The notes beneath the pieces are model-generated. The model worked only from the letters and a program-made list of their open reading frames with translations, was not told the origin of the DNA and did not search any database. Shown here in pieces: positions 39,991-47,508 of a stretch of DNA of 64,000 bases. Position numbers and translations under genes: made by a program. This DNA is from Mesoterricola sediminis (GTDB lineage Bacteria; Acidobacteriota; Holophagae; Holophagales; Holophagaceae), in assembly GCF_030295425.1 (NCBI RefSeq), contig NZ_AP027081.1, positions 4,013,001 through 4,077,000 on the forward strand, given 5' to 3'. How positions within the stretch are numbered: position 1 is the first letter of the stretch; every line of letters begins with the position of its first letter.

Positions 39991-40168
39991 GTTCGCCGTA
40001 TTGTGTTGTTGGGCCTGGGGGGCCGTGCTAACCTCCAGGGGGCATCTGCCGAAGGCAGGTTGTCCATCGCGCACCGGGAGGTCCCTCTCCCCCTGGATCC
40101 TTGGCCTGGCAAGGACCCTGACATACCCACCAGGCACTGGGGCGACGCCCCGCAGGAAGAAGGCTTCA

Positions 40169-40372
40169 ATGTCCGAAGGCACCGTCAAGTGGTTCAACGC
40201 TGAAAAGGGCTACGGCTTCATCACCCCCGACGGAGGTGGCGCCGATCTTTTCGTTCATCATTCCGCCATCCAGGATCGCGGCTTCCGCACCCTCACCGAG
40301 AACCAGCGCGTGAGCTTCGAGGTCGCCCAGGGCCAGAAGGGGCCCCAGGCCACCAACGTCGTGAAGCTGTAG
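40169..40372 (+). CDS. Cold-shock domain protein (copy 2)
   Basis: Predicted 67-residue CspA-type protein, 62 of 67 residues identical to copy 1; both RNA-binding motifs are intact ('KGYGFI', 'DLFVHHSAI'). ATG 40169 follows AGGAAGAAGG. The frame is open for a further 180 bases upstream, but that part is not csp-like. A weak promoter candidate (TTGTTG, 17 bases, TAACCT) begins about 40 bases after the copy-1 terminator. It ends in its own terminator. Confidence 0.96.
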
Positions 40373-40424: not shown

Positions 40425-40508
40425 GGCATGAAATTAACATGATTGAACCCATCAAGGGCCCTGTCTAGGCTGGGTTCTGGGCGGACCCCCCGCCCGGGGA
40501 TGGACACC

Positions 40509-40712
40509 ATGACGGCTGGCTTCGTGAAATCCTTCAGTGCCCAGAAGGGCTTCGGATTCATCACCCCCGACGAGGGCGGCCCCGACATCTTCGTCCACCA
40601 GTCCGCCGTCCTGAAGGGCGGGATCCGGACCCTGGACGTGAACGCCCGCGTCCAGTTCGAGATCGCCCAGGGCGCCCGGGGCCCCCAGGCGACGATGGTG
40701 GTCCGCCTCTAG
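40509..40712 (+). CDS. Divergent cold-shock domain protein (copy 3)
   Basis: Predicted 67-residue cold-shock fold protein, same length as its two upstream neighbours but clearly divergent. RNP1 ('KGFGFI') and RNP2 ('DIFVHQSAV') are kept, whereas the usual 'KWFN' is 'KSFS': the nucleic-acid-stacking Trp8 is Ser and Asn10 is Ser. Binding preference or strength should differ. ATG 40509 was chosen over 40500 because GGGGA lies upstream and because it gives the same 67-residue length. TTGAAC, 17 bases, TAGGCT upstream is a weak promoter candidate. Confidence 0.9.
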   Translation: MTAGFVKSFSAQKGFGFITPDEGGPDIFVHQSAVLKGGIRTLDVNARVQFEIAQGARGPQATMVVRL

Positions 40713-42543: not shown

Positions 42544-42549
42544 TAGAAT
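42544..42549 (+). promoter_or_regulatory. TAGAAT box before pseudopilin-like gene
   Basis: TAGAAT here overlaps an in-frame ATG at 42548. If it is a -10 box, transcription would start near 42556 and the usable start codon is the later ATG at 42572, which has its own GGAGG. Confidence 0.4.
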
Positions 42550-42571
42550 GGGTCAGGAGGGCCGGTCAGGC

Positions 42572-43138
42572 ATGGCGCGTGGCGGGGACGAGCACAGAGG
42601 GTCGCGGGGCTTCATCCTGGCCATGCTGCTGGCGATCATCGTCGGCATGGGGATCCTCCTGACCGCCGTGCAGCCCACCCTCTCCACCGAGGTCCAGCGG
42701 GACCGCGAGGCGGAGCTGATCTTCCGGGGCCAGTCCATCGCCGGCGCCATCCGGGCCTACAAGGCGCGGACCGGGGGCTATCCCCTCAGCCTGGACGACC
42801 TGGGCAAGCTCCGGCCCCGGGTCATCCGCCAGATCTACACGGACCCCATGGTGGCCGACGGGGAATGGGAGCTCATCACCGCCGTCCAGCCCGGCGCCTC
42901 CGGCGACACCACGGGCCTGCCCATCGTCGGGGTGCGGAGCCGGTGCACGGACAACGCGTTCAAGATCTACAACGGCAAGACCCTCATCAGCGACTGGACC
43001 TTCTCCGCCACGGGCAACATGCTCGGCCTGGCCGGGCCCGCCGCCAACCTCCTGGCCGCCCCGGCCACCGGGACCCCCGGCAAGGACGCAACCGAGGCGC
43101 CGGCCAAGAGCGGCGACACCAAGTCCACCACCCCGTGA
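42572..43138 (+). CDS. Pseudopilin-like exported protein
   Basis: Predicted 188-residue protein with a short basic N-terminus, 'RGFILAMLLAIIVGMGILL' as a pilin-like hydrophobic helix, then a charged helix ('QRDREAELIFRGQSIAGAI') and 'YKARTGGYPLSLDDLGKL', a segment seen in type II secretion pseudopilins. The helix begins with Gly-Phe as in prepilins, but the usual Glu at +5 is Ala, so classic processing is uncertain. The tail is Ala/Pro/Thr/Lys-rich. There are no other pilus genes beside it. dacB follows after 19 bases. Confidence 0.72.
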   Translation: MARGGDEHRGSRGFILAMLLAIIVGMGILLTAVQPTLSTEVQRDREAELIFRGQSIAGAIRAYKARTGGYPLSLDDLGKLRPRVIRQIYTDPMVADGEWELITAVQPGASGDTTGLPIVGVRSRCTDNAFKIYNGKTLISDWTFSATGNMLGLAGPAANLLAAPATGTPGKDATEAPAKSGDTKSTTP

Positions 43139-43157: not shown

Positions 43158-44300
43158 ATGATCCGACGCGCCCTGCTCGCCCTGTGCCTCCTCCTCGCCC
43201 TGCCCGCGGCCGCCCTCGACCCCATGGGCGCCTGGGTCCAGCGCATGGAGGCCCGGAACATCCGCGCCTCCGCGGGCCTGTGGGACCTGGAGACGGGCCG
43301 GCTCCTGGAGGGCCACCAGATGGACCTCGCCCTGGTGCCCGCCAGCACCACCAAGGTCCTGTCCACCTACGCCCTCCTCAAGACCTGGAAGCCCAACTAC
43401 CGGATCGAGACCGAGGTGTGGGGCGACCTGCGCGGCGACACCGTCGCCGGGGACCTGGTCTTCAAGGGGGCCGGGGACCCCTTCCTCACCGGCGAGCGCC
43501 TGTGGCTCCTCGCCGAGGAGCTGAAGGCCCGGGGGGTCCGCACCGTGTCCGGCAAGCTGCGCATCGACCAGGGCGCCTTCGACGACCAGCGCTACGGGAA
43601 CGGCTGGGAGGGCACCTCCAGCAACACGACCCCGCCCATCCTCCCCTTCTCCGTGAATTTCAACAAGGAGGACGGCCGGCTGGTCAAGGACCCCGACCGC
43701 CTCGCCCTCGAAACCCTCGCCCGCACCCTGCGCCAGGCGGGCATCACCGTGGAGGGCGGCCCCTCCGGCTCGGAGGGCCGGCGCCTCCTCGCCTTCCCCT
43801 CCCTGCCCCTCCGGGACCTGGTGGGGGACATCAACAAGTTCTCCAACAACTTCATGATCGAGATGCTCGTCAAGCGCTTCGGCGGCGGCACCTGGACCCA
43901 GGGCATCCGGCAGATCCAGGCCTTCTACCAGACCATGCTGGACCTGGGTCCCGACAAGGTGGCCCTCACGGACGGCTCGGGCCTCTCCAAGGAGAACCAC
44001 CTCTCCGCGCGGACCCTGGCCATCGTCCTCCGGGCCGCCTGGAACGACTTCGAGGTGGGCCCCGAAATGGTCGGCTCCCTGAAGATCATCGGGGGCGAGC
44101 CCTTCCGGCTCCACATCAAGGACCCGGACCTGGCCCGGCGCATCCGGTGCAAGACCGGGCATCTCAACGGCGTCACCAGCGTCTGCGGCTACCTGCAGAT
44201 GCTGGACGGCCGCCGGCGGGTCTTCGCGGTCATCCTCAACGGCCCCTGCGCCGAAGCGGACGCCTGGGACCTCGTGCGCCGCTGGGCGAGCCAGGGCTAG
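43158..44300 (+). CDS. dacB: D-alanyl-D-alanine carboxypeptidase/endopeptidase (PBP4, S13)
   Basis: Predicted 380-residue periplasmic penicillin-binding protein that trims peptidoglycan peptides. A signal peptide ('LLALCLLLALPAAAL') precedes the three active-site motifs: Ser63-x-x-Lys66 in 'PASTTKV', Ser229-x-Asn231 in 'KFSNNF' and Lys332-Thr-Gly in 'CKTGHL'. It is shorter than E. coli DacB (477), so the inserted domain is reduced. Its stop and that of the convergent GTPase-fusion gene share the four bases CTAG at 44297-44300. Confidence 0.92.
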   Translation: MIRRALLALCLLLALPAAALDPMGAWVQRMEARNIRASAGLWDLETGRLLEGHQMDLALVPASTTKVLSTYALLKTWKPNYRIETEVWGDLRGDTVAGDLVFKGAGDPFLTGERLWLLAEELKARGVRTVSGKLRIDQGAFDDQRYGNGWEGTSSNTTPPILPFSVNFNKEDGRLVKDPDRLALETLARTLRQAGITVEGGPSGSEGRRLLAFPSLPLRDLVGDINKFSNNFMIEMLVKRFGGGTWTQGIRQIQAFYQTMLDLGPDKVALTDGSGLSKENHLSARTLAIVLRAAWNDFEVGPEMVGSLKIIGGEPFRLHIKDPDLARRIRCKTGHLNGVTSVCGYLQMLDGRRRVFAVILNGPCAEADAWDLVRRWASQG

Positions 44301-46663
44301 GAGGCCGAGGCCAGCAGGTCGGCGAGGGACTGTTTCAGGCGCTTGAGATCGAAGGGCTTGCCCAGGTGGGGCAGGTTCGACGATTCCAGGAAGGCGCGGG
44401 TCTCGGGGTCGAAGGAGTCGCCGGTGGTGAAGAGGACGCGGCGGCTCATGGCCGGCTGGTGCTCCTGGATCCACCCGTAGAGCTGGATGCCGCTCAGGCC
44501 GGGCATGCGGATGTCCGAGACGACGAGGTCGAAGGTGTCGCCCTGGAGCTTCTGGATGGCCTCGGCGGCCAGGGAGCAGGACACCACCTCGCATCCCCAG
44601 GAGGTGATGGCGTCGTTGAGGCACTCCAGCAGGAAGGGTTCATCGTCCACCACCAGCACGCGATGTCCCTCGAGGGCGGGAACGTTCGGGGAGGAGGGGG
44701 CTGCTTCGGACATGGGGAGCTCCACCAGGTATGCGTTGCCGAGGCCTTCCTGACTGCGCACCGAGACGCGGCCCCCGTGGGCCCGCGCGACGGCGGCGAT
44801 GACGCTGGTGCCCAGGGAGTCGGCGTCGGCCGCCTGGGCGACGTCGAACACCCGGCGGGCGGCTTCCTCCGGCAGGGCCGGACCGGTGTCCTGGGAAACG
44901 AGCTGGAGGCCAGCGGACGTCCGGCGGGTTCCCACGCGCACGCGCTTCCCCGCGGACCGGGCCGAGGCCCGGATGGCCACCCGGAACAGGCAGACGAGTC
45001 CCTCCCGGAGCAGGGCCGGGTCCAGGGCCGCCTCCGGCAGGGCCGGGTCCAGGCTCAGGTCCAGGGCCACGCCCGCGGCGGCGGCCTCGGGCTCCATGCG
45101 CTTGAGGGCCTCCTGCACCAGGGTGTTGAGCTGGACCGCCTCGAGGCGGGGCGCGCTGGGCGAGAAGACCATGAGGAGGGGCCGCAGCAGGGCCTGGATG
45201 TGATCGATGGACGCGAAGATCCTCCCCGCCCGCTCCGCGGCCAGGGGGTCCCCCAGCTCCTGCAGGTACAGGTCCCGGTGCAGGACGAGCGGCGCCAAGC
45301 GATTGGACAGCTCGTTGAACATGGACGGCAGGATCCGCGCCAGGGTGCCCACGTGCTCCGCTTCGCCCAGCTGGACCTCCAGGCGCTTGCGGTCGGCTTC
45401 GTCCCGGATGAGGGCAGAGTAGGCCAGCACCCGCTCATCCGCGCCCCGGATGGGGGCGTAGGTGATGAGCACCGGGAACTCCGTGCCGTCCTTGCGCAGG
45501 CGGCTCGTGGGCACGTCCCGGATGATCTGTCCCCCGGCCACCACGGCCATGGCCTGCTCGACCTCCCCGCCCCGGGCGGGGGGGGTGAGCTGGTGGATGG
45601 AGCGGCCCACGATCTCCACGCGGGGATAGCCGAAGATCTGCTCGGCCGCGGCGTTCCAGGTGAGGATGCGGCCGTCGGCGCTGAAGCTGATGATGGCCTC
45701 GCCCACGCTCTGGACGAGCCCCTCCAGGTAGCGCCGGGTCTTCAGGTTGTCCTGGTTCGCCCGCTCCAGCTGGGAATAGAGGGTGTGGAGCTCCTGGTTC
45801 TTCTTCTCCAGGGACTCCTGGGCCGTCCGCAGCTCCGAGTAGAGGCGGGCGGTCTCCATGTTGGACTTGAGGGCGTCCTCCAGCAGGTCCTGGGCGTCGG
45901 CCACCTTGCCGGGGGCCAGTTCGTTGATGCTCACCCCCGCGTGGCGGAGGATCGTGGACTCGGGCTGGGGCGGCGCGGGTTCGGCCTCGGCCCGGGGGAA
46001 CTCCCGCATGCTGGCGCGGATGTTGGACTCGATGAGGTTGAGCATCTCATCGAAATCCTTGATCTTCTTGTCCAGGTGGTATTTCCGGAACGTGGTGCCC
46101 ACCGTCTCCCGGGTGATGGCCAGGAAGGTGTCCAGCACCCCTTCCCCGCGGTTGGCGACGGACTCGAAGTACGGCACCGACCGGAAGTTGAGGCGGCGGT
46201 TCATGACGCCCACCGGCATGGCGTCCCCCAGGTCCCGCTTGTTGTACTGCAGGACGAAGGGGATCTGCTTGATGTTCAGCCGGTTCGCGTTGAGGTTGTG
46301 GTAGAGGTTCGACAGGGAGTCCACGTTCTCCTGCATCTTGGACTCGCTGGAATCGGCCACGAAGACCACGCCGTCGCTGCCCCCCAGCACCACGCGCCGG
46401 CTGGCGTCGTACTGCACCTGGCCGGGGACGGTGTAGATCTGCAGGTGGATGGCGTTCCCGTAGATGTAGCCGAGGTTGATGGGCAGCAGGTCGAAGAAGA
46501 GGGTGCGGTCCTCCTGCGTGTTCACGGAGAACATCTCGCCCCGGTTGGATTCGGCGCACATGGCGTGCAGGGCCTGGAGGTTCGTCGTCTTGCCCGAGAG
46601 ACCCGGCCCGTAATAGACCAGCTTGAGCAGGATCTCATTGGCTCGGGTGTTGAATTGGACCAT
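44297..46663 (-). CDS. MglA-type GTPase fused to PAS, degenerate histidine kinase and receiver
   Basis: Predicted 788-residue cytosolic fusion. Residues 1-200 are an MglA-like small GTPase: P-loop 'GPGLSGKTT' (19-27), 'YTVPGQVQYDASR', 'GVVFVADS' and 'QYNKRD'. A coiled coil (about 250-305) leads to a PAS domain (about 310-425). A kinase-like core follows in which the phospho-acceptor position is Asn450 ('FNELSN' where kinases have H-E-x-N-N), the N-box Asn is missing ('FRVAIRA') and the G1 box reads 'DTGPAL'. The final receiver (about 660-785) is intact, with 'VVDDEP', Asp717 in 'SDIRMPG' and Lys in 'LGKPFD'. The polypeptide probably uses GTP state and PAS input to control the receiver without autophosphorylating. 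It is divergent from uppS; no mglB or roadblock gene is nearby. Confidence 0.9.
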   Translation of the reverse strand: MVQFNTRANEILLKLVYYGPGLSGKTTNLQALHAMCAESNRGEMFSVNTQEDRTLFFDLLPINLGYIYGNAIHLQIYTVPGQVQYDASRRVVLGGSDGVVFVADSSESKMQENVDSLSNLYHNLNANRLNIKQIPFVLQYNKRDLGDAMPVGVMNRRLNFRSVPYFESVANRGEGVLDTFLAITRETVGTTFRKYHLDKKIKDFDEMLNLIESNIRASMREFPRAEAEPAPPQPESTILRHAGVSINELAPGKVADAQDLLEDALKSNMETARLYSELRTAQESLEKKNQELHTLYSQLERANQDNLKTRRYLEGLVQSVGEAIISFSADGRILTWNAAAEQIFGYPRVEIVGRSIHQLTPPARGGEVEQAMAVVAGGQIIRDVPTSRLRKDGTEFPVLITYAPIRGADERVLAYSALIRDEADRKRLEVQLGEAEHVGTLARILPSMFNELSNRLAPLVLHRDLYLQELGDPLAAERAGRIFASIDHIQALLRPLLMVFSPSAPRLEAVQLNTLVQEALKRMEPEAAAAGVALDLSLDPALPEAALDPALLREGLVCLFRVAIRASARSAGKRVRVGTRRTSAGLQLVSQDTGPALPEEAARRVFDVAQAADADSLGTSVIAAVARAHGGRVSVRSQEGLGNAYLVELPMSEAAPSSPNVPALEGHRVLVVDDEPFLLECLNDAITSWGCEVVSCSLAAEAIQKLQGDTFDLVVSDIRMPGLSGIQLYGWIQEHQPAMSRRVLFTTGDSFDPETRAFLESSNLPHLGKPFDLKRLKQSLADLLASAS

Positions 46664-46821: not shown

Positions 46822-47508
46822 TTGAGCCTCCCCCGCCACGTCGCGCTCATTATGGACGGCAACGGACGCTGGGCGGCCCAGCGCGGTTGGCCCCGCATCA
46901 AGGGTCACAAGGAGGGGGTCCGGGCCGTCCAGGACATCCTGGACGAGGCCAGCGCCCTGGGGATCGAGCACCTGACGCTCTACGCGTTCTCCACCGAGAA
47001 CTGGAAGCGGCCCGCCCCGGAAGTGGCCATGCTCATGGCCCTCCTGCGCATGTACCTGCGCATGTTCCTCCCCAAGCTGCGGCGCCGGGGGATCCGGTTC
47101 CACCACCTGGGGTGCGAGGAGGGCCTGCCGGACGGCATTCTGGCCGATCTGCGCGCCCTGGAGGCCCAGACCGCGGACCACACGGGCATGGTCTTCCACC
47201 TGGCCGTCAACTATGGGTCCCGGCTGGAACTGGCCCACGCGGCGCGCCGATGCGTGGAGGACGGCCTGGCCCCCGGGGAGGTGGACGAGGCGGCCCTGGC
47301 CTCCCGCCTCTGGACGGCGGGCGTGCCGGACGTCGATCTGCTCATCCGGACCTCCGGGGAGCTCAGGATCTCGAATTTCCTGCTCTGGCAGGCAGCCTAC
47401 GCCGAGTTCTACATGACCGAATGCCTCTGGCCGGACTTCCGGGGCCCCCAGCTCCGGGAGGCCCTGGAAGCCTTCGCCCAGCGCGAACGCCGCTTCGGCG
47501 GCATATGA
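46822..47508 (+). CDS. uppS: Isoprenyl transferase (undecaprenyl diphosphate synthase)
   Basis: Predicted 228-residue cis-prenyltransferase that makes the C55 carrier for peptidoglycan and LPS. It has 'LIMDGNGRWAAQRG' with catalytic Asp12, 'GHKEGVRAV', 'LTLYAFSTENWKRP', 'NYGSRLEL', and 'DLLIRTSGELRISNFLLWQ'. The start is TTG 46822 behind GGAG; the next in-frame ATG would remove the catalytic Asp region. The cdsA gene follows with overlapping or closely spaced starts, beginning the uppS-cdsA-dxr-rseP group common in bacteria. Confidence 0.95.
   Translation: MSLPRHVALIMDGNGRWAAQRGWPRIKGHKEGVRAVQDILDEASALGIEHLTLYAFSTENWKRPAPEVAMLMALLRMYLRMFLPKLRRRGIRFHHLGCEEGLPDGILADLRALEAQTADHTGMVFHLAVNYGSRLELAHAARRCVEDGLAPGEVDEAALASRLWTAGVPDVDLLIRTSGELRISNFLLWQAAYAEFYMTECLWPDFRGPQLREALEAFAQRERRFGGI

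What the first reader, a model, noticed from the sequence alone, without database searches (positions are those of the whole stretch)
44297..46663. MglA-type GTPase fused to a pseudo-histidine kinase and an intact receiver
One 788-residue protein joins a complete MglA-like GTPase (GPGLSGKTT, TVPGQ, NKRD), coiled coil, PAS, a kinase core lacking the phospho-His (Asn450) with altered N-box and G1 motifs, and a receiver with all acidic residues. In known systems MglA and two-component proteins are separate polypeptides that meet through response regulators such as RomR. Here GTP switching, PAS sensing and a receiver are covalently tied, while the kinase activity appears lost. This may be a one-protein polarity or signalling switch.
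Basis: partly seen in the sequence, partly recalled or inferred. Interest (0 to 1): 0.85.

Follow-up and report, generated by a model that had tools for sequence, protein, structure and literature searches.

The report
Ras-like GTPase wired to dead kinase
One bacterial protein joins a working Ras-type GTP switch to a sensor, a broken histidine kinase and a phosphate receiver; relatives across Acidobacteriota show that such all-in-one GTPase sensors are a large family, absent from the literature I could search, whose kinase part is repeatedly disabled or lost while the switch is kept.

Summary
The gene lies on the minus strand (44297-46663): one 788-aa frame, GTPase-coiled coil-PAS-DHp-HATPase-receiver, with Asn450 where the phospho-His belongs. 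Orthologues occur in 67 of 77 Holophagaceae genomes, so it is not a frameshift or assembly join. Asn450 is invariant in 15/15 sequences from six genera. The Geothrix clade has His there (23/23), g7 has Asp/Thr, and ATP-binding boxes are degraded throughout Holophagaceae. The constant core is MglA-CC-PAS; receiver, or receiver plus kinase half, is missing in several lineages, yet every retained domain is under purifying selection. The novelty claim is too strong: MglA-GAF-histidine kinase fusions are common in Acidobacteriota, form one clade with this family apart from stand-alone MglA (bootstrap 100), and several also lack the phospho-His. I found no published description of these fusions. Best explanation (inference): a cis-wired GTPase switch in which PAS and a phospho-receiver, through a NifL/DivL-like non-catalytic kinase scaffold, set the GTP state of an MglA output, probably acting on type IV pili or polarity. 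In family f3 the gene directly follows a pilin gene in 5/5 genomes.

The parts
44297..46663 (-). whole gene, 788 aa: MglA-type GTPase / coiled coil / PAS / pseudo-histidine kinase / receiver
46094..46663 (-). residues 1-190, MglA-type GTPase
   Evidence: 49% identical to M. xanthus MglA 6hjh (E 1.6e-55; Foldseek); mean 92% identity in Holophagaceae
46586..46609 (-). P-loop GPGLSGKT (residues 19-26)
   Evidence: invariant core in 31 homologues
45728..46093 (-). residues 191-312: linker with motif LLEDALKSNMETARLYSEL shared with GAF-type fusions, then long helix/coiled coil 257-319
   Evidence: helix predicted
45389..45727 (-). residues 313-425, PAS domain
   Evidence: Pfam PF00989 6e-16; pLDDT about 90
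45134..45388 (-). residues 426-510, DHp-like helical hairpin without phospho-His
   Evidence: helices 423-461 and 473-500; alignment
45314..45316 (-). codon of Asn450 at the phospho-acceptor position
   Evidence: N in 15/15 sequences of six genera, H in 23/23 of the Geothrix clade
44699..45133 (-). residues 511-655, HATPase-fold domain with degraded N, G1 and G2 boxes
   Evidence: PF02518 7.6e-7; motifs; pLDDT about 90
44306..44665 (-). residues 667-786, receiver with D673/D674, D717, K769
   Evidence: PF00072 1.2e-19; residues conserved in REC-bearing orthologues
46822..47508 (+). uppS (undecaprenyl diphosphate synthase), divergent neighbour conserved in 52 of 53 testable Holophagaceae loci
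43158..44300 (+). D-Ala-D-Ala carboxypeptidase (Peptidase_S13), converging, overlaps the 3' end by 4 nt; seen there only in the closest relatives (L099-L101)

Best explanation
A cis-wired GTPase switch. The output is the N-terminal MglA GTPase, which keeps its own catalytic residues. Input comes from the PAS domain (unknown ligand) and from phosphorylation of the receiver by another kinase. The DHp/HATPase part works as a dimeric, non-catalytic scaffold, as in NifL or DivL, carrying conformational change along the coiled coil to the GTPase and so setting its GTP/GDP state or its access to GAP or effectors. The likely target is type IV pili or polarity machinery. Shown: domains, motif conservation and loss, common clade with other sensor-fused MglA, purifying selection on each domain, f3 pilin operon. 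Inferred: direction of signalling, dimer scaffold, receiver phosphorylated in trans, pilus/polarity target.
For: GTPase-CC-PAS is the only part present in every full-length class homologue; HK and REC vary or are absent. Mean identity to the window in Holophagaceae: GTPase 92%, CC 80%, PAS 65%, REC 65%, HATPase 50%, DHp 39%. R53, T54, D58, Q82 invariant. Pseudo-kinase and receiver still constrained, dN/dS 0.03-0.45; N450, N454, R455, L456 invariant in N-type. Receiver residues intact although the cis His is gone. In the GAF-type relatives the phospho-His is lost in 5 of 13 aligned proteins while the HATPase N-box Asn and G1 residues stay invariant. f3: pilin gene ends 12-28 bp upstream, same strand, 5/5 genomes. 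Own genome has PilB/PilT-like ATPases. Foldseek hits include NifL-NifA and DivL; NifL signals by conformational change (PMC3466315).
Against: No experiment. The pilin link is in another family of the class; in Holophagaceae the neighbour is uppS. The Geothrix clade keeps His450 and N-box Asn residues, so some members may retain phospho-chemistry. pTM of the model is low (0.38), so no domain contacts can be read. The genome's one clear MglB gene sits beside the stand-alone MglA, and the MglB-contact residue Phe59 is Leu here, so the GAP is unknown.
Confidence: 0.5

Rival explanations
1. Phosphorelay protein: DHp is still a phosphotransfer or kinase module (at least in His450-bearing Geothrix), and the GTPase is a regulatory input to a hybrid kinase; the window lineage is a recently weakened version.
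For: His450 in 23/23 Geothrix-clade sequences with a canonical-looking flank QKHEALGRLVPxLFHE and N-box NLLLNG; stronger HATPase score there (50 vs 30 bits); low DHp dN/dS in those pairs (0.05-0.09); GAF-type relatives with complete kinases.
Against: G1 second Gly and G2 glycines are lost in Geothrix too; His absent in seven Holophagaceae genera (g1, g4, g5, g7-g10); kinase half absent in g11, SZAS-17 and f3.
Confidence: 0.2
2. Kinase half is a fading relic: only GTPase-coiled coil-PAS matters, and DHp/HATPase/REC merely remain attached.
For: Repeated absence of REC (g7) or of DHp-HATPase-REC (g11, SZAS-17, f3); highest dN/dS in DHp of the own genus (0.31-0.45).
Against: dN/dS is well below 1 in every domain and pair; receiver catalytic residues conserved in the REC-bearing orthologues; N450/N454/R455/L456 invariant over six genera.
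Confidence: 0.15
3. A cell-envelope regulator rather than a pilus/polarity switch, tied to isoprenoid and peptidoglycan precursor genes.
For: Divergently paired with uppS-cdsA-dxr-rseP in 52 of 53 testable Holophagaceae loci; D,D-carboxypeptidase or family 2 glycosyltransferase on the other side in some.
Against: Inherited synteny explains this; the uppS link is absent in f2 and f3, where f3 has a pilin operon. MglA proteins of known function act on motility and pili (PMC3441718, PMC3983030).
Confidence: 0.15

Closest known systems
MglA (Myxococcus xanthus, Thermus thermophilus), group 1 small GTPase
   Same: whole G domain, R53, Q82, T54, D58, PGQ, NKRD
   Different: stand-alone and mostly paired with MglB; here fused, no MglB next door, F59L, F84Q, L91V
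MglA-GAF-HisKA-HATPase fusions of Acidobacteriota (no published description found)
   Same: same GTPase clade (fused vs stand-alone bipartition 100) and shared linker motif LxxA[VL]xxNxxxAxL
   Different: GAF in place of PAS, usually intact kinase, no receiver in those examined, often Ala at position 21
Actinobacterial conservons (CvnA-CvnD)
   Same: couple a histidine kinase-like sensor to an MglA-type GTPase (PMC4316618, PMC13343842)
   Different: separate proteins with a roadblock protein, no receiver
RomR-MglA-MglB polarity module
   Same: a receiver domain influences an MglA GTPase (PMC3441718)
   Different: separate proteins; no PAS or kinase fold
NifL and DivL (non-canonical histidine kinases)
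   Same: PAS plus kinase-fold proteins used without classical His phosphorylation (NifL: PMC3466315; DivL from general knowledge)
   Different: no GTPase; regulate partners in trans

Membership tests
MglA group 1 GTPase | P-loop, Arg53 finger, Gln82, NKxD | tested here: met
MglA group 1 GTPase | single-domain protein of about 200 aa | tested here: not met
   788 aa; PMC4316618 treats the superfamily as single-domain
MglA group 1 GTPase | genetic pairing with MglB (roadblock) | tested here: not met
   one Robl_LC7 gene over cut-off in the genome, next to the stand-alone MglA; a second weak match (21 bits, below cut-off) not followed
MglA group 1 GTPase | MglB-binding Phe56/Phe57/Phe59 surface | tested here: inconclusive
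   F56 and F57 kept, F59 is Leu (PMC6785124)
Hybrid histidine kinase | phospho-acceptor His in DHp | tested here: not met
   Asn450
Hybrid histidine kinase | ATP-binding N, G1 and G2 boxes | tested here: not met
   C558/V562, D592 kept but A596, G2 degenerate
Hybrid histidine kinase | receiver with acidic pair, phospho-Asp and Lys | tested here: met
   D673/D674, D717, K769
Conservon (Cvn) G-protein system | four separate genes A-D in one operon | tested here: not met
NifL/DivL-like pseudo-kinase regulator | conformational, non-catalytic signalling | not testable with these tools
   fold similarity only
Sensor-fused MglA clade | groups with other sensor-fused MglA apart from stand-alone MglA | tested here: met
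   UFBoot 100, 48 sequences; sampling of stand-alone and extended MglA limited to 8

The most novel reading that the evidence does not exclude
Acidobacteriota use a family of one-polypeptide Ras-like GTPase sensors in which input domains, including a receiver, control the GTP state of an MglA output directly; the family has repeatedly dispensed with histidine kinase chemistry, turning two-component parts into allosteric regulators of a Ras-type switch.
Probability: 0.4. Interest if true: 0.78.

Novelty: new variant of a known kind. Interest (0 to 1): 0.62.

Why it matters
In the systems described in the literature I read, two-component signalling reaches MglA GTPases through separate proteins, and how the signal sets the nucleotide state is still being worked out. 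A protein holding sensor, receiver and GTPase in one chain makes the coupling testable in vitro with one purified protein, and the natural series (intact His, Asn, Asp/Thr, kinase absent) is a ready set of variants for asking whether kinase chemistry is needed at all.

Tried and rejected
Frameshift or gene-join artefact: rejected, same length in dozens of genomes. Asn450 as a family-wide rule: rejected. MglA-kinase fusion unique to this lineage: rejected. Separate kinase or receiver gene replacing missing domains next to the gene in g7, g11, f3: none adjacent and clearly derived. Direction of change at 450 (loss of His vs gain): unresolved, the root inside Holophagaceae is weakly supported (56-67), though the canonical flank in Geothrix favours His as ancestral. 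Rfam and promoter scans of the uppS/GTPase gap gave nothing. Plasmid protein search gave only PAS-kinase matches, none covering 80%. Literature searches for MglA or GTPase fused to histidine kinase found no description, but the library lacks most subscription journals. RomR and SgmX homologues were not searched.

Full report
What is there. The gene is on the minus strand of the window, 44297-46663, one frame of 788 codons. Pfam gives a Ras/Arf-type GTPase, PAS, HATPase_c and Response_reg. The first 190 residues match crystal structures of MglA (E 1.6e-55). AlphaFold2 from 31 homologues gives confident PAS, HATPase and receiver folds (pLDDT about 90), a two-helix DHp hairpin and a long helix before PAS (mean 78, pTM 0.38, so relative domain positions are not known). 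Foldseek finds PAS-histidine kinases, MglA, NifL-NifA and DivL.

How real and how old. In 77 genomes of the same family, 67 hold a match at E<=1e-60, most covering residues 1-785. Named hits place the family in Holophagaceae (Geothrix and relatives); deeper relatives include Acanthopleuribacter pedis and Sulfidibacter corallicola. The 10 genomes without a match include three reduced genomes of genus g2 and several incomplete ones.

Architecture series. Six Holophagaceae genera (g1, g4, g5, g8-g10) have the window's form with Asn450. The Geothrix clade (g3, g6) has His450 and mostly the N-box Asn. Genus g7 has Asp/Thr and no receiver. One g6 genome (SZAS-17) and g11 end right after PAS. f2 (Acanthopleuribacter, Sulfidibacter) has GTPase-CC-PAS-HATPase without the DHp His and without a receiver. 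f3 is GTPase-CC-PAS only, about 410 aa. GTPase-CC-PAS is therefore the constant core. Whether the shorter forms are ancestral or truncated was not resolved for f3 and f2; within Holophagaceae g7, g11 and SZAS-17 look truncated. Mean identity to the window protein in Holophagaceae: GTPase 92%, coiled coil 80%, PAS 65%, receiver 65%, HATPase 50%, DHp 39%.

Is the kinase dead? In this protein the phospho-acceptor is Asn450, both N-box Asn are replaced (C558, V562), the second G1 Gly is Ala596, and G2 is degenerate. G1 and G2 are also degraded in Geothrix, although it keeps His450. Yet the region is not junk: within-genus dN/dS is 0.03-0.45 in DHp, HATPase and receiver, and Asn450, Asn454, Arg455, Leu456 are invariant over six genera. 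The receiver keeps its catalytic residues although it has no cis His, so a phosphodonor in trans is likely (inference).

Wider family. Searches of 396 genomes of the phylum show many proteins of about 690-790 aa with an MglA domain; those examined are mostly MglA-CC-GAF-HisKA-HATPase, by Pfam for two and by alignment or reading of motifs for the rest. Many have an intact H-box, so the statement that MglA and two-component kinases are separate polypeptides does not hold. In a GTPase tree of 48 sequences, sensor-fused and stand-alone/extended MglA separate with ultrafast bootstrap 100, and the PAS family is a clade with 100. They share a linker motif at the start of the coiled coil, which argues for one ancient fusion. 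In 5 of 13 aligned GAF-type proteins the His is replaced (L175 Thr, L176 Ala, L178 Glu, L186 Asp, L094 Gln) while the N-box Asn and G1 residues remain invariant. Loss of the phospho-acceptor is thus recurrent across the fused family. Positions 59, 84 and 91 differ between fused and stand-alone MglA; Phe59 is part of the MglB contact in M. xanthus (PMC6785124), which suggests altered GAP dependence.

Surroundings. In Holophagaceae the gene is divergent from uppS-cdsA-dxr-rseP in 52 of 53 testable loci. In f3, five of five genomes have a type IV pilin gene ending 12-28 bp upstream on the same strand. The window's genome has PilB/PilT-type ATPases, one clear MglB beside a stand-alone MglA, and two further MglA proteins with C-terminal extensions.

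Mechanism. Most likely the GTPase is the output and PAS plus receiver are inputs, coupled through a non-catalytic kinase scaffold; NifL is the best-described precedent for a PAS/kinase-fold protein acting by conformation (PMC3466315). The pilus/polarity target rests on the f3 operon and on known MglA biology (PMC3441718, PMC3983030), and is inference.

Relation to known systems. MglA, RomR and the conservons couple the same parts as separate proteins (PMC4316618, PMC13343842, PMC3441718). The 2014 survey of prokaryotic Ras GTPases treats them as single-domain proteins (PMC4316618), which may be why fusions were passed over. I found no description of the fused family in the papers available.

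Noticed in passing
L172-L178, L181, L182, L186, L094-L097, L196-L200: MglA-GAF-histidine kinase fusions are widespread in Acidobacteriota; the phospho-His is replaced in several while HATPase motifs persist, and most carry Ala where MglA has Gly21.
   Followed up: partly
L088-L092, L162-L164, L171: In family f3 the GTPase-CC-PAS gene directly follows a type IV pilin gene (gap 12-28 bp).
   Followed up: yes
L201:2152-3564 (-), L202:1747-3129 (-): Shorter fusions that look like MglA plus a GAF-like domain with no kinase (about 465 aa), read from sequence only.
   Followed up: no
window 42548-43138 (+): Protein with a pseudopilin-like hydrophobic N-terminus (GFILAMLLAIIVGMGILLTAV), no Pfam family, about 1.2 kb from the 3' end of the GTPase gene.
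   Followed up: no
L003:1219-2085 (-), L004:922-2067 (-): Two further MglA-type proteins of the same genome with Pro/Ala-rich or acidic C-terminal extensions, no MglB next to them.
   Followed up: no
window 40131-40372 and 40443-40712 (+): Two neighbouring cold-shock-domain proteins.
   Followed up: no
L160:7255-7662 (+): In Sulfidibacter a single-domain receiver gene lies about 0.65 kb downstream of the receiver-less GTPase-PAS-HATPase gene, a possible separated partner.
   Followed up: no
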